The notes below the pieces were generated by a model. It did not search any database and was not told where the DNA came from. It worked only from the letters and a program-made list of their open reading frames with translations. A stretch of DNA of 64,000 nucleotides from Apostichopus japonicus (lineage: Eukaryota; Echinodermata; Holothuroidea; Aspidochirotida; Stichopodidae). Each line of letters opens with the position of its first letter. The first letter of the stretch is position 1. The translations under genes were made by a program, and so were the position numbers. The stretch spans positions 2,785,501-2,849,500 of the forward strand of contig NC_092576.1 in assembly GCF_037975245.1 (NCBI RefSeq), given 5' to 3'. Positions 1 through 60,720 of the stretch are shown here, in pieces.

Positions 1-1164
1 TAACTATATATTTTATACTTCTGAGACATTTTTTTTACAATCTGAGAAAACAATATCACAAAATAACAAACAATGCCAAAGTCATGTGAGAAAAGAATCA
101 CAACTGGTATCAGATTCCAAGTACAGATGTAACGAAATGAGAGAATGAATTACTCTAAATGTTATGGAGTATGGCTCTGTGGAAAGGAGTAGAAATATGT
201 ATGATATGCTCCTAATGTTCTTATACGTAGAAACAATCTAATAACATTTCAAGGTGGAATTACATAAGTATTTAGCTAGGTGGAATTACATCAGTCTTTA
301 GCTATTACAAACCTTATGGTTAGGGACGGACTGGAATAAAAATTGTCACTGGGTATTCCATCACGAGGGGCCCCCAATATAAGATGTGAAACTGTGAACA
401 TGCATAAAGTGGTGGATCATTACGGTTCTTCATATCAGTCCAGACCAATCGAATATCATGTTGTAGTATTAAAGTTTTCTTTTGTGATAATAATGAAAAA
501 GAGATTCATCTTCTACCAAAGTATCAAAACAGACAAAAAAGTTACAAGATAAACACACACAATTAATTTGAAGCCCATTTTTAATTGTCAATCCATTACC
601 TTTCCTTTCACAACATACGTCTAGTGGAATAATACTTGTACGGTGAACAAACATTGCATGTTTTGACAAATTAAAACAAACCATATTTACGAGGGTTTGC
701 AAAGGTTCAAGTTATTCACAGTGTTTCATTATTGAATATACTACTCCATAAAAACAATTGAATAATGGACAGAACCATCATTTTTTTCATTACGAGTACT
801 AGGAATGCGTATAAACATTCCCATGAAGAATGGCTGAACTCTTAAGATCATAATGACAATCTTTCTATGGTTTGATGGGTTCATGGTGAAGTCTACATTC
901 CTTCCAATTGAATCATACCTATGCACATGTTTTTTTTTTTTGCTAGACGCATCTACGCACAAACAATCCGTGCACATGAATTGCACATGAATTGCACAGA
1001 GACTGTAACTAGCCTCGATTTTAAAGTCCTCAGTAACGAAGCATTATGTTTTACCAAGACTTCAACATTAGCCTGTGCCAACAAAGGTTAGTGATTGAGC
1101 AAGATGCCCAACCAGACAATCTCATTCTTATGATGTTCTCTTAATGAAGACTGCACATCTTATA
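1..1164. other. Flank downstream of ACAA2, no gene seen
   Basis: AT-rich sequence beyond the 3' end of the thiolase gene. No reading frame here resembles a known protein and no repeat family was recognised. Part of it may be 3' untranslated region if a more distal poly(A) site is used. Confidence 0.5.
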
Positions 1165-1170
1165 TTTATT
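1165..1170 (-). terminator. Candidate poly(A) signal of ACAA2
   Basis: AATAAA on the minus strand (TTTATT on plus) about 140 bases after the thiolase stop codon. This is a plausible 3' UTR length, but other AATAAA words occur nearby and cleavage was not verified. Confidence 0.4.
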
Positions 1171-1310
1171 TAGTATGGTGGTTTCTGTCACCAGCGAATA
1201 ATATCCTCTCTCGATGGGGACCTGAATACTTCGCTGTATTGATTAATCATCGATTCATTCTCTCACTGATTAGTTGCATAAACACTGGCATTGCTGATGA
1301 TGGCAAGTCT

Positions 1311-1395
1311 CTAGTAGATGTTTTCCAGAATGATTGCAATGCCCTGTCCACCACCAATGCAGGCCGATCCAACAGCGTACTTTCCTCCTCTTCGT
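1311..1395 (-). CDS. ACAA2: ACAA2 exon 9 (C-terminus)
   Basis: Codons 370-397 and the TAG stop at 1311-1313. It encodes [18 protein letters not shown], with the acid/base Cys382, and ends in ENIY. The acceptor is CTGTCTAG preceded by a T-run. One base completes Lys370 from exon 8. Confidence 0.95.
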
Positions 1396-4300
1396 CTAGA
1401 CAGGAAAAAAAGAAGCAGTGAGTCTCATGTTACAAGACATTTACAGGATAAACTCTGAAGAAGTGTAAGCAGGGTATTTAACGGCAAGCATTTCAGTACA
1501 AATACACTCACAGAATTGAACACAGAGAGGTACTAAAGGCACAATGTCATTGCATGATTGGATAAATAGCCAATGGTAGCAGTCAGAAAAACAATGGCAC
1601 ATTGTCTAGTTAGCAGTTAGACAAACAAGTCTTTCTTTACAAAGGTGTTATTTGCACCACGATTAAAAGTCGTACCCTACACAACTAACCCCCCCCCCCC
1701 AAAAAAAAAAACACACACAACACAGAGGAAAACTTAAAGAAGGAAGATGGCAAAGCCATAAACAATGTAGAACAAAGTGAAAAGTACTTTTGTGGTATAA
1801 ATTCACAACCACCAAACTGCTCAAATCTGATTCAAGCATTGAGTGGTTAACAGATTTAGAATTTATCAATTTTAGCTACTAAAATAATGCCAAGTGCTTG
1901 AAGAAAATCTAATGGCAACAATCAAGTTGTCACTGGCATTTTTTAATAACAATAAAAATCAGTGGTTATTTTTACGAGGCTTAAGAGACCAAAAATGTGG
2001 GAGAATCCCGCAAGGGCTATTTGATTACAAACTTACACATCGGGTGGCTTCCAATACAACATTTTAACTAAAATTTGGAATCTTCATATCTTAGAAAGTC
2101 ATTTCAGATGGGAAAACCTTACTATGACCAAGCCGGGTATCGAACCCAGAACCTCCGGATTGCTAAGCCTCATTGATTCAAATGCCACTCGGCCACAGCA
2201 CCGAGTTACAACACACTACAATTTACTACTTAAGAGCAACCTAATACTATTTACTGATAATCAAGCGGTCATAAACCGCTAATGTTAGGTACGGACATCA
2301 ATCGGATTCTTTTACTGACCATTGGAAACTGATTTATCGTAAGAATGACGATTGTTTACCAATTTGGCCATGTGTTTATATTCTTATTATCTGTTGCTTG
2401 CAAAATGCAATATGCTAAAAGCAAAACCCACTGGAATTTAGCCAGTAAATAGCCTGAACTTGGAGATCGGCTTGTAAAATGCGACGGATACTTCAGAAGA
2501 TTCTTGATAACAAAACGAAAGGAACAGAAGATAAAACAGAACTTACTTCAATTCATGAGTGAGATGAGCTGTGATTCTTGCACCCGAGGCACCGACAGGA
2601 TGACCTACTGCAACAGCCCCACCGTTTACATTCGTTTTGTCCATATCAAGACCCAGTTCTCTTTGAACAGCGACAAACTGAGCTGCAAATGCTTCATTGA
2701 CCTAAAGAACAGATACAGCATAAATAACTATCAACTCAAAGTCTGATTGTGGTGTATAAAACTATGGCAATAGGTTCATTGGTTCTTGGTGAGGTTTTTA
2801 TACTGAAGTCTATTGATGTACAATAACAATCCTTTATTTAGAGTATTCATCCATAAACTGATAATAATGAATACAACATCCCAAAACTCTGATCTGCTTA
2901 AAAGAGAGCTATATTTTTCTGAAAATTATCCTGCCGCTAGTGGGTTTCCCAGCTGGCTTGTAATAGGGGCAGGGATGAAGATGTTACTGCTCATAGCAGA
3001 TTCTAGAAAAATCAAATCTATGCTATCAATTTAACCAATTTTGTTTGCACATTGAGAAAACATTAACTTTACTTATTCCATGTTCAAGATACCAAGGCTA
3101 GCAAAACATTCAGCAGGGCTAGTGGAATTTTAAATTTACTGGCCCTGCTGAGCCATACATTACTTTGTCCTGTTGGTATACTGTATCATGGTACAGTTTG
3201 TAGAGTAACCCATACCACATACATGACCATTCTGACCATAATCCATAATCTAATAGTTAGAGATTATGTTACAATAAAACAAGAAAAAAAAGAAAATTAT
3301 TGTAATAAAACATACTTTACACAGGGTTTCCAAGTTCACACACATTGTAGGAAATAAAAAATGCCATGACTTTGTTCTGTCAAAAAATACACCACTTAGA
3401 TGAACTTGGCCAAGAATGTTGGATTTGGTCACATTCCTCACGAGGCAAAGAAGCATCGTGCGAAAAAAATCTGTTTTAGAGATTTCATTCCATTTTCCCA
3501 TGACTTTTGACATTTTTTCTCTTACTTTTACACTTCCCAGCCTGCAAATTGATTTTCAATTTTCCATGACTTTTTTACAAGTTTTCTATATCTTGGGAAA
3601 CCTTTATATCTTGTGTTACCTCAACGAGGTCCATATCATCTAATTTCAGTCCAGCCTTGTCCAGTGCTTTCCTGATGGCATAAACAGGTCCAATACCCAT
3701 GATGTGTGGGTCACATCCTGACGCATTATAGCTCACAATTCTAGCCAGAGGCGTCAACCCGTGTTTGGTCACAGCTTCCTCCGAGGCTAAGATGTTAACT
3801 CCAGCCCCATCACAGATACCCTGCACAGAAGTCACAATGACACATTTTTAATGTAGAGCAGATTGGAAAATTGGACTTTTTTGATGTAATATCATAACAA
3901 GCAAATTTCATGATATTATCTTGTCAAAATTAAGAAGTATGCACAAACTTTTCCATACAACGTGACACTCATACAAACATTTTCCGGGCGCAGGGAGGGG
4001 GGGGGGGCAGGAGACCCTTGTTTAAAAACACTAATAATAATCAGGCAGTTATTTGTATGACTCTTTAGTGATCACGAATGTGGGAGAACATTGGGTGGCT
4101 TCCAATGCAACAGTTTAAACTCAAAGTCAAATTTTTTTCAATTTAGAAAGTCATTTCGGATGGGTTTTTTATTGGACCCTATTATGACAGACTGACGAAG
4201 ACTTTTGCACAGATCACCTAGGGGTGGGGTGGGTCCATGGATCCCAGTTTGAGTAAGATGGGCCCTAGGTATTCAAGCTGGGTTAAAACTCACGGATGCA

Positions 4301-7300
4301 TTGCCCGCAGATACCAAACCGTCTTTCTTGAATACAGGAGGTAGTTTCTTAAGAATGTCCATGGTAGTCTCTCCTCGAGGATGTTCGTCCACGTCCAACA
4401 TCTTTGGTCCTTTCTTTGTCTTTACCTCCACAGGAGCCATTTCCTGCTTAAAGTAACCTGCGTCATTCGCTGAGGAAAAGAGTAAAATAAAAAAAAACCT
4501 GTTTAGCAAACTGCTTATTATCCACTAAAGAGCATGTGTATTAAGAGAATGTGTAAAAGTATGTGGGCCTGACATTTCGATCCTAGCAGGATCTTCTTCA
4601 GACTGAATGACAAGTGACAGAAGGGACAAATAGAAGCACAGAATACAGACAGATTAATGAGCACGGTGAACACAAAGAGATAGATGTAAGGGGATTAGTA
4701 GACAAGGGATGGAGGGAAGAAAGCAACCAACAGGCACAAGAGGAGAGGTAGGAGGTAAAGAAGGAGATAAAAAAAGGAGGGAAAAAGTAGTGAACAAATT
4801 AAAATGAAACTGAAAACCTTTTTAAACAAACAAATGAAAAAATGAAAGCGGATCAAATCAAGAAAAAGTAATGATTAGTAAAATACTTCTGAAGATAGAG
4901 GAAGCTAATAGGCTCCATCTGCAGTCCGATGACTCATATTTAAAATAATGCCAGAGAAGAATAGAGAACAGCAAGATAAATTTATCAAAATTAATCTCCA
5001 GGAGGTTTCCATCAGAAACCCTACTGACACATCGGGTTATTATACAATGAACAAGACAAATATGAGAAATACACGCTCCTGTGAGATCTTTCCTTCTTCT
5101 AACACCAATCAGCTCTTGACGACCTATCTATCAGGAGTATACAGAAATTTCAGAGAGCCATCTTTCTCTAACTATACTTCCCGTTAATGACACTCTAGAT
5201 TACATTGAAACAGGGAGATTCATCTACATAGGGTGCAAGGCAACAGGGTTGCCTTGTTAAACTGCCTGTGAACACAGTCTAGCTATTCCCTCTGTGGTTC
5301 ATGGAAAAGAACACACATAGCACTCCTGATACATCCAGCTACTTTACAATAAAAATACAAATAGGATACACTCTAGAACTGTAAATCTTTTCTCTCTTCT
5401 AAAACATTGCAGCCTTTTATTTTTGAAAATGCATTGTTTCACCCCATCCCCTCCCTACCCGACCCTTCCACCCCCTGCAATTTTAATTTATGATGATTTT
5501 CCAGACTTCCTACAGCAGTTGTGAAGGTCCCTGAAACCTGGTTCAGATGCTCTGCAAGGATCTCCAACCCTGTTTACAGCACCATTGCTTCATCCTGACT
5601 TCCACCCAAAGGGAAATAATTACTTGGAGAGGACCACCAATTTAAGGGCTGGGTAGCTCAACTGGAAGACCAACGTCAGACTTTGTACTTCTGTGAGTTC
5701 AGTGGGTCCAATGAACATTAAGACCAACACTTTCTTTGCTTTTTTTAAATTTGTATAAATAATTTTAAGTCCATATTTCTGTGAATGAATTCGCATAATT
5801 CTAGCTAGTCAATTAACTGAATGTACAGCTATATATATTGGACTCACCAGCTTTCCACCTGTGTTGTGAGGTTAGTGCAAGTTGGTCAGCATCTTCTCTG
5901 GTCACTCCGTATTTAGCACCCAGGGTCTCTGCCGTCACCCCCATAGGAGTCTTAATCTGCAGGTCTGTAAGAGTTGCCCAGAGAGCATCTTCCATCTAAA
6001 ACATTAATGCAAGAATAAAAGAAAATTAACATGATTTTGCTTTAATAATAACAATTCAAGCAAAAACGTTCCAGAAAGAGGAAAATATAACTGCAAATAA
6101 CAAAACTATCTATAATAATATCAGTCAACTCCCATTCTACTCCTCCTCCAAAATGTGTTTTATATAACAGGCCCAGGATTTTAACAACTTTAGCCATTTA
6201 ATAAAGCAAGTCAATTGCTTAAAAAAAATCTACTAAGCTTTTTCTAGTGACAAAGAGCAAAATTCGCTCGCAGTTAGCCAGAAAATAGCCCCAATTTCGA
6301 GGCCTGTATTATAAGAAAATAAATAATTAAATAAAAAATACAAACTAAGTCAAGTTTAATGTTATTGTATTCCTGTGCTGGTTGTTTTATGGTTGGGCTT
6401 TCCATGGGGCATGTGCCCTACTTGGCCCTTTAACCTGTTATATTATGTTATATTACATCTTTTTGAGGTTCACATAAGAGTGAAGTCAACAAAAGGTAAC
6501 AAAATTATGAGGTTTGCCAGACATTTTAAAAAAAAAGGAATGTAGACCTTTGTTCAGCAAATTAACGACTACATGAAATTACAAAAGGAGATTTTATGAT
6601 TTTCAAATCATCCCAATATCTTCATGTGATATGATATTAAACTACTGTATCTGTAGCCTGTCATGTCTCTCAACAACTACTGTTTGCTTCATAAGTATCA
6701 TACCCTCTCTAACCACACACTTCACTGATTACCTGGGGGATCAAAGACCAATACGGGCCAGATAGATGAGCAAGGTGAATTTCTATACTTTTGTCTGTTG
6801 CAACAAGTCGTTTAAACATTAAGCTCAGCACTGTGCTATATGTCAAAGTTCTATGGAGAGCAAAACATACAGACTGTAGTTCTGTTCTTGTTGCTTTTCA
6901 TGGGGAAAATGACCACAAAAGCTTTTGTTTTTTTTAAATTTTTATCTTGCACATGTACAGCATACGGTACACAGCGGGATGCCCCGCCAGTGTTTGAAAC
7001 AAATCCGATATATATGTTACCAGTTTTGTATTGCAATTTCATGGACAATTTCGACCCACCTGTCAAGGATAATTCAAATTTGAGATAATAAACGGTCAAA
7101 TTTTAACAACCTTTTGTTTATTTAATGAAAGTGTTATAAGCAAGTAATTGATGATACAATTTGGTTTGCATCATTCCAGAATACTCTTACACATGCATGT
7201 ATCATGCCAAAATAAATAAAGCAGGAAAAAAAAGGAAAGAAGACAAAATTGAGACGAGTTCAGTAAAACCAGCATTTGAGCAGACTGCATTATATGTACA

Positions 7301-11669: not shown

Positions 11670-15692
<4,023 letters not shown>

Positions 15693-21909: not shown

Positions 21910-24900
21910 TTAATGGAGGGCTGAAATAGATTGAGGTTATACAAACGCATCGAAAGACTGTTCCCCATGTGACCACATAACAAAGATATCATCAATGTAA
22001 CGTAGGTACAGGAGTAGTAGAAGATTAGAACTTTCGAGAAATCTAGATTGAAAATTAGCCATAAATAGATTAGCGTACGCTGGGGCCATTTTTGTCTCCA
22101 TGGCTGTCCCCTTATCCTGAATATACAATTTTTCCATGAACGCAAATACGTTGTGTCTGAGGATAAAGTCTATATGTAGGGCGATCTCCTCAGCGTTGTT
22201 GTGGTTGCCCTCAGATAAGTATTTCTTACATGCCCGCACCCCCTCATCGTGCGGAATATTGGTGTAAGGGGCAGATACGTCGAGTGTGACAAGTAAGGTA
22301 TGGGCCGGGAGTCTGATGGGTAGGGTGGATAGTTTCCAAAGAAAATCTGTGGTATCCTTGACGAAACATCAGTGGTTGTAGCTGGCTATCGATGAAGCCA
22401 GAAATATCCTCAGTGAGGGTACCTCTACCAGAAACAATAGCGCGTCCGGGTGGTATCTCTTTGTCATTGGTGTGCATGGTGGCGGTCGATTCAGAGGATC
22501 CAGGTATTGTCTTCATTTTGAGGATTTTGGGGAGCATATAGAAGCAACCGGGTGATGGAGCTTTGGGTATGAGATGTCCGATGGTTTAGCAGAGCCGTTC
22601 AGGAATGGTTGAGATTATGCTGTTAAGTTCATTTTGATGGTTTACTGTTGGGTCTGAGTTGAGTTGCAGGTAGTTGTTGCAGTGTCGTTGCCTAGTTGCC
22701 TTTGTGCCTCCGATGTGTAGTCGTCGCGATCTTGTATGACAATGGCTCCTCCCTTGTCAGCTGGTTTCACCACAATGCCGATATTGTTCTTCACAGTTTG
22801 GAGTGCCGTGTGCTGCAATTTATTGAGGTTAGGACGAGATTGTATATATTCTTCTCGGAAATGGAACATAGGAATTTGAGATATGAACACTGTGAGAAAG
22901 TTTCCCTCCCTGGTTTTTAGAAGAAAAGAGGAGAATATACTATGGATTTGTCCTCCTTGCGGGGGTAGTTGGGTTGATGTAGTGGTTACGTCCTTCCGGT
23001 GGAGTCAACCATCTGGATTTTGGTTTCGATTGGATTAGTAGCTGATCACCTATTGTATTGTCTGGGGTACATCTTTAGCCCACTCCGTTAGACGGATTCT
23101 GTGACAGAATGACATAGTGTCTTGACATAGCTCAATGTCATTAAGTCCCTAGGTAGGACAAAATGACAACCCCTCGTCAAGGCCTTCCCTTTCTGATTTT
23201 GTGAGGGTGTGTGCGGACAGGTTAACTATGCTTGAAGACTTGTTCAATTGAGGGTTGGGTGCCCGCAATGACTCCTGAGGATCAATTATAGACTGTGTAG
23301 CACAATAGTATCTCCATCGTCTGAGATCTCCAAGAACTGGGTCTTGGAATGAACTTGTGTCATTTGCGTTGGATCGGTAATTGACCGGGAGAGGTATTTC
23401 TTCTCCTGTTCAATACTTTCAGAAATTCTTTTCTGTTTCTTGTAAGCGTCTTGAGCGCCAGATGCATTGTTTCTGTGACGCCATCCTACAGATAGAAGTG
23501 GCTTCAGAATCATGTCCAGTAGATAATTGTGTTCTTCAATCAAAGTCCTCTAGGAATGAGATCCAAGCTTTTGCAGTTGGACAAAAAGTGGATGCTAGAC
23601 CGTGTTTGGGTCAATTTCATGAGACGTAATTCCCTCCTGCGTTCTTCTGGCTTGGAATGGTACGGCATCGAGAAATGGGTCTGTACGCATGTTGTACCTA
23701 GTCTTAATATTAGGTTGGATTAAAGGCATTCCTTGTTGTCCTTATTTTTTCTACTATTATTTCTATGCAACACGTGGAACGGTTCATCATATCTATACCT
23801 ATATATAAATATTTTTTTGCACAATTTTGAACGGACAGCGATCAGCAAGTAGTATGCCAGTTTGTAGTAGTTGCTCGGCCAATCAAGTCTAGAATTTAAT
23901 AAGTTTAGCCACTTGCTTAGAAAAAATGCCAGTGCTTAAAAAGTCAACTGACTAAAATCAACTTCCTACTTGCATTGGGGGGGGGTGGTGGTGGTGGTGG
24001 TGGTGGCTGGAGCATTCTTACATAAGCTATCCTCCACTACATTATTGAAATATCTTTCAACCATCAGCGCTGTTATAATTGTAAAATAATTCAATGTATT
24101 TTAAGTTTCAGTTAATCAATTTTATATGAGACATATTTTGACAACTGCCAAGGAATTTGCTTTTTGGTATATCAAAACTTTTATCTCTCACCGCCCTCCC
24201 CCTCCCCCTCCCTTCCCTCACCCTGCCCAACAGATCAGAGCTTTACAATTAGATCAGAACCGTATCAAGAAGACAAGAAAGCATCTTCAAAGTCTCCAAG
24301 AGAAAAACATGAGAAAATGATGATATTCAAACAAAACTAAAACAGAATAAAATTTAAAAAATAAAACAGCTTGAATTAAAAATCACCTGGTGATCAGCAG
24401 ACAAAAGATGAAGAATTCTTAAGGTTTGGGATGAGGATGAGACCTGCAGGAGAACATCAGAGACGGCGCGAGTGCAAGAGAGGAGTGGTGAAGAAGAATG
24501 GACAGGATAGATTGAAAGATTGAAGGATTGAAAAGAAAGGAAAATAGTAAAGTGAAAGACAGAAACTAGCATGAATTCAAATTCTGACAGAAAAAAAATA
24601 AGAAAAACCATTTCCTTTTTATTTTGATCTTTTTTCTTTTAGAATTTTCAGGTAGTAGCTCAGCATTAGAGTATTACTTTATATTTTAATTTTTTTTTTT
24701 TTTTCATGTTTACTTTTAATTTTGTTCTTTGATTTCACCAACTGCTGCTTCCTCCAATGCATGAGATGGCAAATAGTGGCAGAGGGTTAAAAACTGTTTT
24801 AAACCTCAAATTCGAACGGAGTAAAGAAATCCATAGCTAGAAAAGGATCTGTACCATTGACTTCTGTATTATATATGTAACAAGCTTGGCAGCACATTGC

Positions 24901-34200: not shown

Positions 34201-37200
34201 TAGGCCTACCTGACAGCATCATTAGTGCCCATAAATTCTAAGCAGCTAGCTCGTTTTTGTGATGATGTAAAATAGATTGAATTTTTTTCTTTCTCTTGAG
34301 ACATCTCACAGGCCGCAAAAAAATCACTGGCGGGCTGCATGTGGCCCACGGGCCGAAGGTTGCCCACCCCAGATCTAAATCATAACAGCTTTTAGAGATG
34401 ATGGCTTGGGTAGATATGCCTCTCATCTTTAGCGTTTTTTTGTTTTTTATGTTGTGTTTCTTTTTAGTTTGACTTCTTACTCTTAACAATCATAATTCTC
34501 AGTTCTTATATAGCGCAACTTACAATAAAGTCTCGCCGCGCTGTACTTAACCCTGGTCATTGGTAACTTGTCACACCTACACACCAAAGTGTGCACAATT
34601 CAAACAATCTATCCTGGGGCACCACAGTGCACCACAGCCACGTGTCCCATGGGGGACTTCCCATAGGGTGCAGCCACAAACTGGCGCATGCAACTATATT
34701 TACAAGTCACCTCGCAAGTCCCAATTTATACACCTGGGTGAAGAGAGGCAATGGAGATAAAGCGCCTTGCCCAAGGACACAACGCAATGATCTGGCCAGG
34801 GCTCGAACCTGTAATCCTTAGATCACAAGTCCACTGCCTTAACCACTTGACCACAACGCCCTCTCATTTATGATTTATGTTTTAATGCCTTGCGAGCACT
34901 GTAGTTTCCTTTTAAGGATCAATTAAATTATAGTTACTCTTACTCTTACTCTTAAACCTCTCTTGTTACTTACTCTGCTCTGGCTCTCTTCTCTTCCTTT
35001 ACTTTATCCTGGAGAGACCTCAGATAAGACTTGGTCTGCTCTAAATCTTTCTCGGCAAACTCCAATTTCCCAAATAATTTATTGTTAGTCTGTAGAGACA
35101 CAAAATGTAACACTGTACTCATAGCTTTTTGTTAATCGTAACACAGACAATTTTCATTTGATTTGAACTACATATATTAAGAGAAGAAAACTGTTAGCAA
35201 ACTGCTAATCTACTGCAAAAAGCCTGTGTAGGTACATGTGTAAAAGTTAGAGGGCATGCTGACATTTTGATTCCTAGCAGATCTTCTTCAGAGGCTTACT
35301 GAAACAAGCAAAAAACTAAGAAAGCAACAAATGAAATCGTTTACTGTTTGTTGTGTCCATTTTTGCTCTATTCATTGCTGATTTGTCCAATTCAATTGTC
35401 TGTTCCTCTGTGTCTACCTATCATAAATTATGATTAGGAAGACAGACATTAGCTCACTTGAAATAAAAACAAACTAAGAACACAACAAAGGAAATCCTAT
35501 GTTTTTTGTTGTGTCCATTTTTGCTCTATTCATTGCTGACTTGTCCAATTTAACTGGCTGTCTCTCTGTGTCTACATATTGTAAGTTATGATTAGGAAGA
35601 CAGACATTAGCTCACTTGAAATAAAAACAAACTAAGAACACAACAAAGGAAATCCTATATTTTTTGTTGTGTCCATTTTTGCTCTATTCATTGCTGACTT
35701 GTCCAATTTAACTGGCTGTCTCTCTGTGTCTACATATTGTAAGTTATGATTAGGAAGACAGACATTAGCTCACTTGAAATAAAAACAAACTAAGAACACA
35801 ACAAAGGAAATCCTATATTTTTTGTTGTGTCCATTTTTGCTCTATTCATTGCTGACTTGTCCAATTTAACTGGCTGTCTCTCTGTGTCTAAATATTGTAA
35901 GTTATGATTAGGAAGACAGACATTAGCTCACTTGGCAACTAAGTCTGTTTATCTTGTAGGAAAAGCTCTTTGTACAGTAAGCCCTCACTTTTTTCCTGCT
36001 GATCTTACTGACAGGAGGTGGACATTGACATCATATGTCCTTTTTTCCTGCTATCTTACTGACAGGAAGTGGACACTGACATCAAATGTCCTTTTTTTCT
36101 GTTGATATTACTGACAGGAAGTGGACACTGACATCAAATGTCCTTTTTTTCTGTTGATATTACTGACAGGAAGTGGACATTGACATCAAATGTCCTTTTT
36201 TTCTGCTGATCTTACCAACAGAAAGTGGACACTGACATCAAATGTCCTTTTTTCCTGCTATCTTACCGACAGAAAGTGGACACTGACATCAAATGTCCCT
36301 TTTTTTCTGCTGATCTTACTGACAGAAAGTGGACACTGACATCAAATGTCCTTTTTTTCTGATCCATTTCTTCAATCAAGTGAAAGGTTTATATCAAAGC
36401 ATTGTATTTACTTCAACAAGACAACCCAATGCAGTATCCAGCTAGAAAACATTGTGAGAACAGTTTTTGTATTCTTATCCGAAATTGTTGGATTTCACTT
36501 CACCAGAATATCTCTAATGCTACCTACAAACATTCAAACTAAGACAGAGACCAGCAAAAATGTTTACAGACAAACAAACCTCTTCTAATTTATCCTTTTG
36601 CTCTTTGGTTTGTTTTTCCGTGGTGCTGAGTTTCGACAGCTTGACCTCCAATTCTGTCTGTTTCTGGAGCAGTTCCTGGAGTAATTCTTCCTTCCTCCTC
36701 ATCTCAGCATCCATCTCCTCTTTATCCCTCTTTTCTCTCTCTTTCTCCTAAAAGTAAAATATGGACAGGAAAAGTAGTGAAAAACTTCCCACATTTGATT
36801 ATTTTGTTGTTGTAATGTCACATACACAGCAGCATGTGAAAAGAGCATGGCAAACATAAGGACGAATTTGCTAAAGTTCTGTTCAATTCAGAAATGTTAT
36901 TTTGTTATGTTTAGTATAGCGAATTGCTACACAAATGCAAATATTTAAGCACCTTATATAGAAAGGTTATTTACAAAACAAATTTCAAACCCTCAAACAC
37001 AGATTCACAAAATTTTAGCGCTAAATTATATAGTGCGTTTCTGTAAGATTTTGTAGCGTTTATCTAATCCAAACGGTTTGGGATTTTAATGATTGTAACA
37101 TATCCCTAATACCCTTATTTTCTACTTCGAAGGGCTTTGCAAGAGTACCATGATTAAAACTTAATCAGTAAAGGAAGGTTGCTACTACAAATAATATGAT

Positions 37201-40200: not shown

Positions 40201-43200
40201 CCCATCCCACTTCCCCTCTCCCTTTAAAGGATTCTCTAACTACAGTTCATGGATGAAACAAGGAAGATTGTCCACTAGCTAAAATCGTTCATCCTCATAT
40301 AAAGTAAATATTCAGCTATTTCGGGAGATGACAAAGTAAAGTGCAGTATTGTATTATACTATGCGATGACATTTGCTTTGTTCTGTAGATGTTCAACAAG
40401 CAGTAGCTCAAATGCTGTTCAATATCTCTGTATGTCAACAAAACGTGAGAGCAGTTTATTGAAAGAGTCCTAAAATATGGGAGTGGTTCCTAAATGTCTG
40501 AGTAATTTGTCAAAGTGAATTACGGGATATATATCGCAATCACACCCACTGTCCCATAGATTACTACTGTACATTATACTATAACTACTGTATGATGAGA
40601 GTAGAGTAATATAACTGTAAGAATAACTTTGTTGATCCATAAAAGGAAACTACAGGGAGTCTACAGCACAACTGCAGTGCAATACAGCACATTTGAAAAG
40701 CATTACAGGGCAATACAGGGGCTTATAGGGTAATACAGGGCAATTACAGGGTAATACAGGGCACTTACAGGGTAATACAGGGCAATTGCACAGCAATACA
40801 GGGCAATTGCAGGGCAATACAGGGCAATTGCAGGGCAATTGCAGGGCAATACAGGGCAATTGCAGGGCAATACAGGGCATTACAGGGAACCTGATGCTAC
40901 TATGACTCTGTATTCACCAAGTGCATTTATATATTAAATAATTTGAATGTTTTGAATGACCACCGTAGATCTTGGTCCTCTATACTATATTTGTTAGTGC
41001 ACCTTTGCAGAGCGTGTACTGACACACAGATTGAATGACTCTTACATTATATATTGTGCAGATTAATGTGTATTAATGTGCAGAACGAATTTAAATAGAG
41101 TATCCATGTATTTGCTACAGTAGATTAATACCATACATATTTAATTCAAAGAAACACCTACCTGAATTACCTGTGTACACTGTCTGCAAAGTATGTACTG
41201 TTCATTTATATGGTGGAAGGGATTAGGAATACAGAATACATATAGTACTGAAAACAGAATACATAGATGTAAATACTGTGCACTGTGTTTCATTACTATG
41301 CAATGATGTCTAATATAAACTGTCTTCTATATATATCCAGTATATACTGTACATACAGTAATAGACTTATATAGAGAACAGAATACATGCAGATACAGAA
41401 CATGGAATACATCCATTACTGTGCACTGCATGTGCTTCATTACTGTGCAATGATGTATAATATACTGTCTGCATATTACATATATAGCCAGTACTGTACA
41501 TGCAGAGAACAGAATACATGCAGATACTGCATGGAATACATCCATTACTGTGCACTGTGCTTCATTAATATGCACATGTCTAACATACTTTCTGCATACT
41601 ACTGTACGTACAATATATATATCCAGTATATACTGTACATACAGTGATAGAGAACAGAATACATGCAGTAGTGTAAACAGAATACATCCATTGCTGTGCA
41701 CTGTGCTTCATTAATATGCACATGTCTAACATACTTTCTGCATACTACTGTACGTACAATATATATATCCAGTATATACTGTACATACAGTGATAGAGAA
41801 CAGAATACATGCAGTACTGTAAACAGAATACATCCATTACATTGCACTGTGCTTCATTACTATGCACATGTCTCATATACTGTTTGCATAGTACATATTG
41901 TACATATATGTAGCCAGTACTATACAGTAATAGAGTTCAGAATACATGCAGATACAGAACATGGAATACATCCATTACTGTGCTCTGTGCTTCATTACTA
42001 TGCAATGATGTATAATATACTGTCTGCATAGTACATATATAAACCCTATATATATATAGCTAGTACTATATAGTAATAGAGAACAGAATACATGCAGATA
42101 CAGAACATGGAATACATCCATTACTGTGCACTGTGCTTCATTACTATGCACATGTCTAACATACTTTCTGCATAGTACTGTACGTACAATATATATATCC
42201 AGTATATACTGTACATACAGTAATAGAGAACAGAATACATGCAGTAACTGTAAACAGAATACATCCATTACATTGCACTGTGCTTCATTACTATGCACAT
42301 GTCTAATATATATACTGTCTGCATAGTACATATATATAGCCAGTACTATACAGTAATAGAGAACAGAATACACAATTTACTGTGCACAGAATACATCGAT
42401 TACTATGCATTGTGCCTCATTACTATGCAATGATGTATAATATATACTGTCTGCATAGTACGTACAGTATATCCAGTACTATACAGTAATAGAGAACAGA
42501 ATACAGAAACAATTTACAGTTAACAGAATATATCCACACAGTACAGTACACTGTACATACTACATGCACAAGTCCATACATGTATCAATTTATACCATCT
42601 GCACAATGGAGTAGTAATGGATACTTATGTTTTCAGAGCAAACAAAATATTAATACTATGTTCACACACACACACAACGTAGGAGCACAGCATCTGTAGG
42701 TAGCATAATATGTGTCGACAATTTCAAATTACAATATATACACCAAACACAATGATACATCGCATTCAATCTACACTATAGATACCATACCTGTGTGAGA
42801 TCATACGCTGGAGGGATGCTTTTATTCATGAAATAAAGCAGTTGAAAAATATATAGACTTAATATTAGCCTTAAATCAGCATAATAGATGGACCAAATTA
42901 ATGCCATTGTGTAGGGATTCATGTTTTATGATATTGTGGTGACCTCTGCCTCACCACACTGTCAAAAACCAGCCACATAAGTCTGTTTGGGAAGTCAAAA
43001 TGGCTTGTATAGTAACTATTACACTAAATACACTGCATGTCAGGTGGCTATCCAAGCTAAATTGTTTACAGTACAGGTAATGTTGCATTTTCTTCTTGTT
43101 TGGAAGAGTGCTTCAGATCCATGGGAAAACCTCCTTCCTTTTTGCCAGGATGGAGAACCCATTTAATGGATGCAGGCCGGGTCTGCAACCTACAACCTCC

Positions 43201-54185: not shown

Positions 54186-55329
54186 GCTAGCTGTCCAGGG
54201 GTTCAGTAGAATACTGGATATCTTTACTACCATGTACGGTAGTGTGCGTCTAGAGTCATACATGTGTCTTAGCTGCAAGACAAAAAACTCCCCACATAAA
54301 CAGGGCTATGTATGGCACAGTAATGTATGTACAAATAAACTACACTAACATACACCTACAGTAATGCTTAAGATGATAAGATCTGTGTGGCCCTATACTA
54401 TATGAAATTTGTGGAGCTACTTGTTTGATACTCCTCAGTTCATGATGATTTCCAAAATCCAAACCCCCCCCCCCGCAATCCTCTCACCCCTCCGCATCTA
54501 ATACATCCAATCCCAAGCCCTAAGTTGGGTCCCTAACTAACTTTACAATAGTCTGTTACTAATGTAATTTTACTATCTTTTTGTTTTGTTTTATTAGATT
54601 TTCATTGTTGTTATCTCTCTAGGATTAACTAGGTGAGTGCACACTAAGAGCCTATACGGCAGGTAGGCACCTAGTTAAGACTGGTCCTGACATATACAGT
54701 ATGTACAACATATACACACAATCTGTATATACTGTACAGCATATATTTAATACAACATAGCACTTACACTGTTGTACATCATGCATCATGTTCATTTCAT
54801 GTACAGGTTCATACAGGTACTGCACTGTGTATGCTATACATCTACACAGTACTAAAAGTAATTTATCCTGGCAGATGAATGCTAAAGCCAATAAGGTTTG
54901 ATAGTACTGCAAGACAAGTTACATTAGAAAATTATACCTGTAGAGCTCAAAGAACTTTATCCACATGTATGCTACCCCAGAATAATGCAAATATACCATT
55001 TCAGACTGTAACAACAGCTGCTATGGAAGACTACTAGGGCCATAAATCAATACTTTCACAGAGTGGAGGTACCAAACATTGACATTTGACGGATGTTACA
55101 GATGTTGCTGACATTGTTATGTATTTTATGGCATGCATGGTTGACTTGATGTTAAATTTTATTTAAAAGAGTGCAAAAAAATGAAAAAAAAATGATATAT
55201 CATCTGGAATTGTCACACTCCAAAATGTATCAAACCTTGAACTATGAAAAAGTTGGAATGAAACCAACGAAATATGCTTCTTTGATTTTTTTTTTTTTTT
55301 TTTTCTCTTTTTAAATAAGTTTTTCAATT

Positions 55330-55500
55330 AATACAAAACTGTTAGCAAACTGCTTAAATCCACTGAAGAGCCTTTGTAAGATAATGTGCAATAGAATGAG
55401 GGCCTGACGTTGCGATCTTCTTCAGAAACAGATCCTGAAGAAGATCCTGCTAGGATCTAAACTTAAGCCCCTTTTACTTTACACATTAACTAGTTTTTAA
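55330..55500. repeat. Degenerate paired hammerhead-like units (copy c)
   Basis: The boundary word CTGTTAGCAAACTGC near 55339 leads to a minus-sense unit at 55400-55426 that lost stem II (CTGAAGAAGATCGCAACGTC). Then a plus-sense unit at 55434-55466 (CTGAAGAAGATCC, TGCTA, GGATC, TAAA). Inverted arrangement as at 58551-58682, but eroded. Confidence 0.6.
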
Positions 55501-56515: not shown

Positions 56516-58550
56516 TCTTGGCCAAATACAGTGGCCGTGCTGTTGTACCTAGGTGTGGAATTGATCTGTGTATCTAATACACAATTACAGTACTTACACC
56601 CTGTACTTACCTTCAAGGATTACTGTATACAGCATACATGCATAAAAGGGCCAAGTATCTAGTTTTACCTTTGACATTTACATACACCTCAATAAGAGTT
56701 ATCTACTTAAAGACAAGCATATTTCGTTGTGTGATATCAGTCACAGACAATTCTAACGGTTGTAGTGTATGTGTTTACACTTTATAAACACCCAGACTTT
56801 TATGCTGATATATGGTAAGCACTTGTTTACACAAGAAGCTGTGTAAACAGACCCAGAGGAACAACATTTACTCAGAAAAAGATAATCACTCCGGTTCTTT
56901 CTATTATAAATGTCTGTTTTATAAAAATTTCTCAAGCATAATTTTGTGACCAAATTTTGTTTCATGGCAACTTCTATAAAAAGTAGAAGGTCTCATTTGC
57001 TCTGTCTAGTGGACATATTCAGCATCAAATTGAATGTTACATGGAAGGAACCCTGTAGGCTATATGGACAGGGCCAGTAGCCAGAGTTCCGACTCAGAGA
57101 CGAGGGGGTGGGGGTGCTGCCAGGGGGGGTACAAAGTTTTGCTGTGTCTGTCTTTGGTGAGATCTAAAAAAAAATACATTTGGGTTTTCTAAGATGGAAA
57201 TTGGCACTATCATTTCCATTATTTTAACAAAATATGTGTAGTGCAAATGTGTGTTATTAAATATTTAAGCCATTTAAATTAGTCTGAAAAAATTGAGGGA
57301 ATTGAATCCCTTCGTTATTTCATGTACATCACTATACAAGTACAATGCTGTACATTTTAGTACCAGGCAAAGGAAGATTGATTTTTCAAAATGGAGCTTT
57401 TGATCAAACACTTAATCAAATATTGTGTGTTTTGTAAAATGACATCCAATTATATTAATCATTTATCGGGAAACAGACTGCAGTAATAAGCCTGGATTTT
57501 CATTTTGATTGAACTTTATTAATTATGGTCTTAGTATTTTACCTTGCCGTGAAAGCATTCCTATCATGAATTCCCCAGAACTGAAAATTTCACTTTTTAA
57601 TATGAAGAGGAGATCACAGAATAAGAACCCATAATTCATCACTTCTGCATGTTGGCACTGTGTATCCAGCACAGTTCTAACCGAAATGAGAGAAACTGGA
57701 CATAATGTATGCGTGGAAGTTTAATGGTAGAGTGCTTCATTTTGTGGTACTTTGGTCAAAATTGATAAAGACCAGCTTCTAACATTAATTCAGTTTAACT
57801 TAAATATTGTTGTTTGAACATTCTTCCACAACTTAATCACCAGACACTGAAATTGTTGCAAAATACACAAATTCAATCATAAGAAGGATTTTGACACACC
57901 CACAGTGTGTACAGTGCAGTTTGTGAATTGATAGATATACACAACATCCTTCAGTAGCTACTGTACACTACTGTACAGTACTGTACTGTAGCTCTTATAT
58001 CATAAATCACATTATAACTTGCAACAAGCTGTGAGATCTTCACAGCAAAACAAGGATAAGAGGGCAATCCATGGAGTTGCATATTTCAGCAAACACTTTA
58101 CACTGATTTCAAATGTAAAAATGTACAGCAGCTCTATGAAATCTGGCACTACCATTTACAATATTGAAGTTAAAACGATGCTTTCATTCTTTTGTGAACC
58201 TTACAATGAAAGAAACTAGGCTGGGAGTCCCTCTTCTAGAATCATAAAGGCTTCTCTAAAACAGTGATAAAATGTTTTGTGAAACTTGCCTCTTTTTTTG
58301 TCCATTTTATACGAACTTTTAAGAGGCTAGATATATTACCATTTATTGTCAATCGGTAAAATTAGTCGGCCTAGGCCGACTTTGTCCTCTTGTGCAATTA
58401 GAAGCTGAAAATAGACCCAGACCTAGGCAAATTTTCCCTTGCCTATGAGCTCATCTGTCTAACACCTATTTTCTAACATTTTTGGCACGTTTCCAGGGAA
58501 AGTTCCATGCAGTAAATTATTTTGGCTCCACTCTAACATTAATAAGTTCA

Positions 58551-58682
58551 TGTGTAAAAGTAAGTTGGCCTGACGTTTCGATCCTAGCAGGATCTTCTAC
58601 AAAGGCTAAATGACAAGTGTCATTTAGCCTTTGAAGAAGATCCTGCTAGGATCGAAACGCCAGGCCAACTTACTTTTACACA
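58551..58682. repeat. 132-bp near-perfect foldback of two hammerhead-like units (copy d)
   Basis: 58551-58616 is the reverse complement of 58617-58682 with about two mismatches, starting TGTGTAAAAGTAAGTTGGCC and ending with its complement. The centre is TGACA-AG-TGTCA. Plus arm: AGCCT, TTGAAGA, GATCC-TGCTA-GGATC, GAAA, CGCC, AGGC. The GCCT/AGGC stem I is intact, but box 1 C and the cleavage-site T are mutated. The minus arm keeps CGAAACGTC but has TTGTAGA. The outer flank at 58715-58732 carries the GTTTGCTAACAG boundary word. Confidence 0.85.
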
Positions 58683-58739
58683 TTCTCCTGCACAGGCTCT
58701 ACAGTGGATGAGCAGTTTGCTAACAGTTTTATTTTATTT

Positions 58740-60720
58740 ATATTAATCAGTTCAGTCAGTAAAGGATCTGCAAAGTTATGCAAACTTTTATTGTAGATGT
58801 TCAAGAAAAGTAGGTCAAATATCTCTGTAACATTTATATTATAAGTACAACACACATCAAGCCAACAGAGTACAGACTCCTCCGCATGAACAAAACTGTC
58901 TATTCCCCATAAAAACACGCATCTAGCACAATATCACAGCTCCTAGCTACGGCCACCTTTATGAAAGAAAATCTTGAAATCACACGTTTTAGGCCACCTG
59001 TCTTTATTAAAATATTCCTGTAGAAAACGTCAACTCCGCAAAATACAATTATAGTTGTGTTTTTGTAGTTACTGTGTGTGAGATCCGGCCGTAACCGCTA
59101 GTAGTTAGTCTATTTGCTATACACCTAACTATGATAGGATATTAATTCTTTCTTATATTTGGAAAATTCTAGAAAATACAAGTTTTCTTGCGCACCTTAC
59201 AATATTAAAAAATGTGTAATGGCAATAAATTGTTCAAACATTTCCCGCTAGGCTGATTATTAAAAGAAAAAATTAAAGCAACTGGGCAGAAGCTGTCCGT
59301 TGTGACACCTACACCTATACCCTGAAGTTGTGAGTAGGTTGGGGGCACATCATTACTCGTTGGTATTGTGACTAAAATTGAGAGCACTCTCTGAATACTT
59401 TCCTTTAGTTTCTGAAACTGTTCTTGTGAAATCTTACTTTTTTGTTTTTTACAGATGTACCTTTTCTCCCTTAGTGTTTTTCTTTTTGTCATTTTTCGCC
59501 CGTTCTATCGATTTTTTTTTTGTCTTCGGTCAGGCTGGAGTTTCCCCTGAGCATCCTGGATTTCCTGTGAACCTGGTTCAGATTCAGGTTTTCCAGCCTA
59601 GCCGCCTTTATAAGAATTGGCACCCAAATTTCCAAAATTGCAACTGGGCAAGAAAAAGCAAACAACTTGATCTACCCACAACCCCAGTCCCTTTCTATCG
59701 ATAGTGTAATCATGTAGCGTAAACCTTGCTTAGGGAAAATCCTAGGCTAGACATAACAAAGCAGGCTTGTGCATAGTCTACCTAGCAACTTAACGATAAC
59801 TTTAACTTAGCCTCTGCACGTAAGATAGGCTAGCCTATGCCTAACGTTTAGGGCTTGGTTTCGTAATCTTACCATAATCGGTTATTAAGAGATATGGATC
59901 ACTTTTCCCCCAGCAGCAAACGACAGATGAGGCAATCAGCTCTTGTACATTTAAGCAAAAAAGAAGGTTGTTGAATATCGTTCCAAGTCGTGCATCAAAC
60001 AACGTATGTTAGGCTATCCGTAACTAAGTTCTAGCGTTACATTACATCTAGGCTGAAGCTAGGTTAATTTAAGTTTGTAATATCGAACAGTGTGTGATTT
60101 GCAACCTACAGTATCTTCATACACATGTGTCACTCAGCAAAATCCGAGCGCCATTCAGATTGTAAACAAACGTATGATACTGCAGTATCACTAGTTATAT
60201 ACACTTGAGTATACAAACCCCGAAAAGAGAACAGCTGTGTGTCAGTCAGTGGGCGGTACTTTTTGCCCGGAAACAAATTTTCTTAGACAGTTTAGCAAGA
60301 GCGTCCCCAAATTGACAAAAACTTTTCCAACATTGAAACCTATAAGCGAAGACAAATAAAATCACACCGCTGAAGAGTATGAAAAGACGCAAATAAATTG
60401 TCGCAATGGGAATGTTGGAGTTCGTAAGGGTTTCCTGGTGAAGCAACACAGAAGACAGCTACGTACATATTGTACGATGGAGTTGCAGGCGAGGGGTTAA
60501 ACGGTAGGCTGCGCCTTAAATTAATGCAAACAAAAATAGTATACACGTTCAAACTAATTCAATTTGTTTTGATTTATTCTCTATCTTTTTCTTTTCTTTT
60601 GATAAAGATGGATTTCAGAAACAATATAAGTACAATGATCACATTTAAACCTAACATTAAACGTCTTCTAAAGAACTGAGAAAATGATATACTTTGTTAG
60701 TACTGTAATACGGAAAGAGC
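58740..60720. other. Intergenic stretch, nothing assigned
   Basis: No protein similarity or defined repeat was recognised. A minus-strand frame at 59205-59492 is moderately charged (KISQEQFQKLKES) but lacks recognisable family features or good splice context. Confidence 0.4.

What the first reader, a model, noticed from the sequence alone, without database searches (positions are those of the whole stretch)
58551..58682. 132-bp near-perfect palindrome built from two head-to-head hammerhead-like units
Seen: arms identical apart from about two mismatches, each with a full stem II and GAAA box, centred on TGACA-AG-TGTCA. Transcription of either strand would make a long hairpin that masks both ribozymes. 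Near identity of the arms implies recent origin or gene conversion. A second, eroded inverted pair at 55.4 kb suggests inverted dimers are a recurrent product of this element.
Basis: partly seen in the sequence, partly recalled or inferred. Interest (0 to 1): 0.75.

Follow-up and report, generated by a model that had tools for sequence, protein, structure and literature searches.

The report
Head-to-head Penelope retroelement insertion
The palindrome is a short jumping-gene insertion in a eukaryotic genome: two copies of the end of a Penelope-type retroelement laid down head to head, flanked by a target-site duplication; many similar insertions occur in this genome, and their regular build says something about how these elements integrate.

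Summary
The palindrome is real (66-nt arms, 97% complementary, 2-nt centre) but is only part of the feature. The insert runs 58551-58741: an inverted unit starting exactly at TGTGTAAAAG, a direct unit, a ~57-nt 'tail' on the direct unit only, and a 13-bp target-site duplication (12/13) around it. The same unit, ribozyme-like core and tail included, lies just before and just after an open reading frame with reverse transcriptase and GIY-YIG domains at G000:C10. It is therefore the terminal repeat/3' end of a Penelope-like element (PLE). Of 54 inverted dimers examined in this genome, 50 have a full tail on one arm and none on both. Junctions differ between loci, and 31 of 38 tested show target-site duplications, so dimers are made anew at insertion. 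The hammerhead-like cores here are changed at core positions (C3U in both; A6U or U16.1C besides) and are probably dead. Head-to-head PLE palindromes with a tail on one repeat, and hammerheads in PLEs, are already published. The strict one-tail rule looks new and bears on the unsolved second half of PLE integration.

The parts
58538..58550 (.). left target-site duplication ATTAATAAGTTCA
   Evidence: 12 of 13 match to 58742-58754, ending exactly where the left arm starts
58551..58619 (-). left arm: inverted PLE terminal unit, starting at TGTGTAAAAG (start site 1), no tail
58572..58602 (-). hammerhead-like core of left arm, changed at C3 (U) and A6 (U)
   Evidence: positions 17 and 20 of the reference unit; core numbering recalled
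58618..58683 (+). right arm: direct PLE terminal unit; overlaps left arm by 2 nt (TG)
58631..58661 (+). hammerhead-like core of right arm, changed at C3 (U) and U16.1 (C)
   Evidence: positions 17 and 46; core numbering recalled
58684..58741 (+). tail, present on the right arm only (aligned to 58739; two more bases before the duplication)
58742..58754 (.). right target-site duplication ATTAATCAGTTCA
55328..55485 (-). second, older head-to-head dimer; left arm starts at TGTGTAAAG beside an eroded duplication, tail on the other arm only
   Evidence: duplication gapped (37 of 3000 random pairs as good) and below the threshold
4480..4726 (-). single, 5'-truncated unit with tail
35157..35305 (-). 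single, 5'-truncated unit with tail
21937..23549 (-). broken PLE reverse transcriptase remnant (another PLE copy, not joined to the palindrome)
   Evidence: RVT_1 E 9.5e-7 for 21937-22368, 29.2 bits, just under the 29.6 cut-off; the ORFs upstream of it (4 tested) gave no Pfam match; relatives across the genome

Best explanation
A Penelope-like retroelement (reverse transcriptase + GIY-YIG endonuclease) integrated only a stretch of its terminal repeat here. Shown: the insert is a head-to-head pair with fixed outer ends (site 1, TTTTACACA, on one arm; the tail end, ...AACAGTTTTATTTTATTTT, on the other), an inner junction that varies between loci, and a target-site duplication. Inferred: the endonuclease cut both target strands with a stagger. 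Each exposed 3' end primed reverse transcription inside the element RNA, one at the tail site and one at site 1, about 45-57 nt upstream of it. Both cDNAs ran towards the RNA 5' end, and their 3' ends were joined by short microhomology or with small templated fill-ins, giving the palindrome. The ribozyme is not needed for this: the copied stretch spans the cleavage site uncut, and about half of the scored arms carry C3U. Confidence is about 0.95 for PLE origin and about 0.65-0.7 for the two-strand mechanism.
For: Unit just upstream of an ORF with RVT_1 (E 5.8e-9) in L064, and again after the end of that ORF in L065, where GIY-YIG scores E 1.3e-5, 25.9 bits against cut-off 22.6. First dimer search: 40 distinct places scored, each matched on both strands. 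Of 54 dimers examined, 50 have a full tail (score >=60) on one arm and 0 have tails on both; the other four are L007 (tail split), L037 (24 nt of tail), L038 and L042 (none found). The left arm ends within 3 nt of site 1 in 36 of 42 and 11 of 12. Target-site duplication score >=9 in 31 of 38, against 0.66% of shuffled pairings. Junctions of 42 dimers: 13 with a 2-nt TG or CA overlap, 26 with 1-17 nt of filler; 19 fillers of >=5 nt match their own arms more than shuffles do (115 against 80.4). Adjacent RT hits within 6 kb: 7 head-to-head, 0 tail-to-tail, 8 same-direction. In vitro work on a lizard PLE (PMC11167929, passages) reports cutting and extension of both strands, two internal RT start sites bounding the tail, and insertion unaffected by ribozyme mutants.
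Against: No reads, RNA or enzyme were tested. Single units are common: of the 40 best matches to a single unit only four had an inverted partner listed, so many insertions are not dimers and need a simpler route. Arms of one dimer share C3 state (43 of 50 against 25 by shuffling) and private variants (14 against 2.8), which self-copying explains as simply as two templates. The seven mixed-state dimers could be later mutation: for the first 41 dimers, 6 of 39 against background gave P 0.011, uncorrected. The lizard study saw no difference in start site between strands, whereas this reading needs one site per strand. Only best-scoring dimers were sampled. L038 and L042 show no tail. No Rfam hammerhead model matches.
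Confidence: 0.7

Rival explanations
1. PLE insertion by self-priming: one cDNA starts at the tail, reaches its end, folds back and copies itself, making the inverted arm; self-priming is the published proposal for Penelope palindromes in a rotifer, there on an antisense template.
For: Palindromic junctions and head-to-head order (PMC3846280, passages); 13 of 42 junctions fit a 2-bp snap-back; several fillers are copied from the arms; arms share variants.
Against: A fold-back copy should run through the tail to the target; instead the left arm ends at site 1 in 47 of 54 dimers, usually beside the duplication. Seven of 50 dimers have arms of different C3 state, though later mutation could explain these.
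Confidence: 0.25
2. A foldback DNA transposon or MITE with long terminal inverted repeats.
For: Near-perfect palindrome, short size, many copies, target-site duplication.
Against: Outer ends differ (full tail on one side only, 50 of 54); single units exist; junctions vary; matched duplications vary in length; the unit belongs to a PLE.
Confidence: 0.02
3. An animal retrozyme: circular RNA from tandem type I hammerheads, with inverted dimers as by-product.
For: Hammerhead-like core; animals carry such elements (PMC7229834, passages).
Against: Those are tandem repeats with canonical type I hammerheads; these units lack helix III, and in the loci read they are single or inverted or sit at the ends of a PLE.
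Confidence: 0.03

Closest known systems
Penelope of the rotifer Adineta vaga (PMC3846280, passages read)
   Same: Head-to-head inverted terminal repeats with palindromes at the junction, tail optionally on one of them, duplications of 8-10 bp in the cases read, terminal-repeat-only remnants.
   Different: That paper presents 37 ORFs and proposes self-priming; the word hammerhead does not occur in its text. Here many short dimers allow counting: one tail per dimer, fixed outer ends, variable junctions.
Poseidon PLE of Anolis carolinensis (PMC11167929, passages read)
   Same: RT + GIY-YIG, terminal repeat with hammerhead motif, two internal RT start sites bounding the tail, cleavage of both strands, ribozyme dispensable for insertion in vitro.
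   Different: In vitro no start-site difference between strands was seen; the genomic dimers here pair one start site with each arm. In Poseidon the start sites lie inside the ORF; here they lie before the first ATG of the open frame in L064 (inferred start).
Hammerhead motifs of PLEs (Cervera and De la Pena 2014, not held, recalled; review PMC6155905, passages read)
   Same: Minimal motif lacking helix III: CTGAAGA ... GAAAC-GTC.
   Different: Here one extra A lies between the CUGANGA box and stem II (whether published PLE motifs have it was not checked), and C3U is about as common as C3 in the sampled arms.

Membership tests
Penelope-like element | reverse transcriptase ORF of PLE kind joined to the unit | tested here: met
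   L064 unit 451-575, open frame 559-3195 (first Met about 724), RVT_1 E 5.8e-9, 36.4 bits against 29.6; relation to telomerase not tested
Penelope-like element | GIY-YIG endonuclease at the C terminus | tested here: met
   L065:1-300, 25.9 bits against cut-off 22.6
Penelope-like element | terminal repeats in tandem or inverted arrangement with a tail on one | tested here: met
   RT copies 3258 bp apart in tandem; stretch holding the ORF end and the unit 100% identical over 571 bp; full tail on one arm in 50 of 54 dimers
Penelope-like element | target-site duplication | tested here: met
   31 of 38 dimers, the window's palindrome among the 31, the 55.4 kb pair among the 7 that fail; AT-rich targets seen by eye only
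Hammerhead ribozyme | conserved core CUGANGA, GAAA, UH at the cleavage site | tested here: not met
   window arms changed at C3 plus A6 or U16.1; elsewhere 21 of 80 scored arms of 42 dimers keep all tested core letters
Hammerhead ribozyme | match to an Rfam hammerhead model | tested here: not met
   none at gathering in the window nor in the relaxed searches of parts of it and of L064, L065, L012
Hammerhead ribozyme | self-cleavage | not testable with these tools
   no assay
Animal retrozyme | tandem repeats with canonical type I hammerheads and circular RNA | tested here: not met
   units single or inverted in the loci read; circular RNA not testable

The most novel reading that the evidence does not exclude
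When a PLE extends both target strands, the reaction is obligatorily asymmetric: each subunit of a PLE dimer primes from one strand, at different, fixed start sites of the RNA, so one cDNA carries the tail and the other never does; the two cDNAs are then end-joined head to head. The 'optional tail' of PLEs would be the footprint of an asymmetric integration complex.
Probability: 0.37. Interest if true: 0.7.

Novelty: new member of a known kind. Interest (0 to 1): 0.42.

Why it matters
The 2024 in vitro study leaves second-strand synthesis and later steps of PLE mobilisation unvalidated (passage). This genome holds many short, mostly independent insertions that record both start sites and the join, so competing models (two-strand priming, self-priming) can be scored on natural data. 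It also shows that many copied RNAs carried a core change expected to inactivate the ribozyme, so its cleavage is not needed for these insertions.

Tried and rejected
Rfam hammerhead search: no hit in the window at gathering, in the relaxed 54.5-59.5 kb and 4.5 kb searches, or in L064, L065, L012 (the mir-643 hit in L012 and the MIR8008 hit in the window lie on the palindromes and are below cut-off). Viral contig pattern scans: 0 and 0. PDB sequence search with the PLE ORF: 0. Gene conversion and assembly artefact: judged unnecessary or unlikely, see above. Mixed arms as proof of two templates: too weak (P 0.011 uncorrected). Duplication of the window copy alone: 0 of 20000 against random zones, but 208 of 20000 pairs at equal spacing as good, hence the genome-wide test. 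Duplications around the single copies at 4.5 and 35 kb: none convincing. The query with the upstream part of the repeat did not complete. Dimers sharing flanks (L043/L044; L066/L067/L068) are probably duplicated loci, so 54 dimers are about 51 events.

Full report
OBSERVATION. The palindrome at 58551-58682 is as described: arms 58550-58615 and 58618-58683, 66 nt, 97% complementary, 2 nt apart, with two substitutions. Each strand folds into one long hairpin. The same unit occurs as an older inverted pair at 55.4 kb and as single units at 4.5 and 35.2 kb.

WHAT THE PALINDROME IS PART OF. On the right the sequence goes on for about 58 nt (58684-58741) with a stretch that the single units and the 55.4 kb pair also have; the left arm lacks it. 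Directly left of the left arm lies ATTAATAAGTTCA (58538-58550) and directly right of the tail ATTAATCAGTTCA (58742-58754), a 12-of-13 duplication. By itself this is only moderately significant: 0 of 20000 random zones but 208 of 20000 pairs at equal spacing do as well. The 55.4 kb pair has the same build; its duplication is eroded and gapped (37 of 3000 random pairs as good) and fails the threshold.

GENOME. The window's genome is held (671.6 Mb, 35 contigs). The palindrome as query gave 323 candidates, of which 40 were scored; these are 40 distinct places, each matched on both strands, hence inverted dimers. A single unit as query gave 1780 candidates, 40 scored, only four with an inverted partner match listed nearby; of the 10 loci read from that search, two (L051, L052) hold an inverted partner. 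So single units are common and dimers may be a minority. A second dimer as query gave 528 candidates, 40 scored, 12 of them new to the sample. I fetched the 39 of the first 40 that are not the window's own, and the 12 new ones; with a second dimer in L018 and the window's two, that makes 54 dimers. L043/L044 and L066/L067/L068 share flanks and are probably duplicated loci, so about 51 events.

ARCHITECTURE. Tail: 50 of 54 dimers have a full tail on one arm and none has tails on both; the exceptions are L007 (tail split, remainder 1.86 kb away), L037 (24 nt of tail), L038 and L042 (none found). The best left-side tail scores, 27 in the first 42 and 28 in the last 12, lie close to the shuffled maximum of 25 (shuffles only). 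If each arm chose its start site independently, at most half would have exactly one tail. The left arm ends within 3 nt of site 1 in 36 of 42 and 11 of 12. Duplications: 31 of 38 tested dimers reach score 9 against 0.66% of shuffled pairings; the test allowed 4 nt of arm and 6 nt of tail in both, the four dimers without a full tail were left out beforehand, and the 12 new ones were not put through it. Junctions: of 42, 13 have a 2-nt overlap (seven CA, six TG), one a 1-nt overlap, two none, 26 filler of 1-17 nt; the 17-nt case (55.4 kb pair) is partly an alignment effect, because its right arm is deleted. Of the 12 new ones, two overlap, two abut and eight have 1-13 nt of filler. The 19 fillers of 5 nt or more among the 42 resemble their own arms (sum of longest matches 115 against 80.4 for shuffles), though 9 of the 19 are unremarkable one by one (P >= 0.2); the filler of L031 resembles the repeat further upstream (by eye). 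Fixed outer ends with variable junctions mean that dimers are generally made at their own insertion and not copied from a master dimer; L015 and L027 share a nearly identical filler with different flanks, which I read as the same snap-back happening twice but which could be a copied dimer.

LINK TO A PENELOPE-LIKE ELEMENT. A remnant PLE reverse transcriptase in the window (21.9-23.5 kb) served as query: 272 candidates, 150 scored and matched. One locus, L064, holds the complete unit just before an open stretch of 879 aa (first Met about nt 724) with RVT_1. The next stretch, L065, shows that ORF ending in a GIY-YIG domain, then about 300 nt, then the unit again, and then a sequence different from that in L064, directly after ...AACAGTTTTATTTCA. 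Of the 10 loci examined around RT matches only L064 carries the unit; the others were seen to 1.5 kb only, and the window's own RT remnant is not shown to carry it. The stretch with the ORF end and the unit is 100% identical over 571 bp between the two. L063 shows a kilobase-scale head-to-head pair (1033 bp, 99.9%). Among the 150 RT matches, neighbours within 6 kb are 7 head-to-head, 0 tail-to-tail and 8 in the same direction. So the head-to-head habit exists at both scales.

ARMS AND TEMPLATES. In 41 dimers (the 55.4 kb pair left out) the arms differ at 140 of 2499 columns; C3 state agrees in 33 of 39 against 19.5 by shuffling, and 13 private variants are shared against 2.4 (0 of 2000 shuffles reach either). 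With the 12 more (55.4 kb pair and L044 left out; 52 dimers): 43 of 50 against 25, and 14 against 2.8. So the arms usually come from one RNA or one source locus, or one is copied from the other. Seven of 50 are mixed at C3; this hints at two RNAs but could be mutation.

RIBOZYME. The unit has CTGAAGA, a 5-bp stem II, GAAAC and GTC, without helix III, as a review describes for PLEs (PMC6155905, passages). An extra A precedes stem II, and no Rfam model matches. In the window copy the left core has C3U and A6U, the right one C3U and U16.1C. In 42 dimers, 21 of 80 scored arms keep all tested core letters, 19 differ only at C3, and 7 dimers keep them in both arms. C3U stands in 42 of 80 arms of the first 41 dimers and 49 of 102 in the enlarged set; the sample was picked by similarity to two queries, one of each type. 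That C3 or A6 changes kill the ribozyme is general knowledge; the lizard study reports that C3 and G8 mutants do not affect insertion in vitro (PMC11167929, passages).

MECHANISM. Shown by sequence: fixed outer ends, one tail, variable joins, duplications, membership in a PLE. Inferred: both target strands prime reverse transcription, one at each start site, and the cDNAs are end-joined. The self-priming model of PMC3846280 (passages) remains possible; the sharp left end at site 1 speaks against a simple fold-back. Why single units also form is not explained.

NOVELTY. Head-to-head PLE repeats with one tail, and PLE hammerheads, are in print (papers above). Paper searches listed no held paper whose title or abstract start speaks of counting tails per dimer, but only listings and passages of four papers (PMC3846280, PMC11167929, PMC6155905, PMC7229834) were read, and key subscription papers are not held. 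Verdict: a member of a known kind, with a useful quantitative twist.

Noticed in passing
window 21937-23549: Broken PLE reverse transcriptase on the minus strand, with relatives 77-80% identical over about 70 residues at C20, C12 (two), C15, C5 and C8; no unit found within 1.5 kb of these six.
   Followed up: partly
L063 (G000:C10): Kilobase-scale head-to-head PLE pair, arms 99.9% identical over 1033 bp, so probably a young insertion.
   Followed up: partly
L043 and L044; L066, L067 and L068: Dimers that share flanks: probably duplicated chromosome segments rather than separate insertions.
   Followed up: no
L015 and L027: Two dimers with different flanks share a nearly identical 8-nt junction filler.
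   Followed up: no
window 55401-55450: Tail-bearing arm of the 55.4 kb pair lost its stem II hairpin, apparently by deletion between two GATC repeats.
   Followed up: no
window 14979-15686, 35313-35934, 41371-42465: Tandem arrays with units of 18, 158 and about 146 bp; the 35 kb unit copy lies next to the second one.
   Followed up: no
window 4301-4470: Minus-strand reading beside the 4.5 kb unit looks like an exon of a thiolase-type enzyme (recalled, not searched), with the unit just upstream of its splice site.
   Followed up: no
L007 4595-6451: About 1.86 kb of other sequence separates the tail into two parts, probably a later insertion.
   Followed up: no
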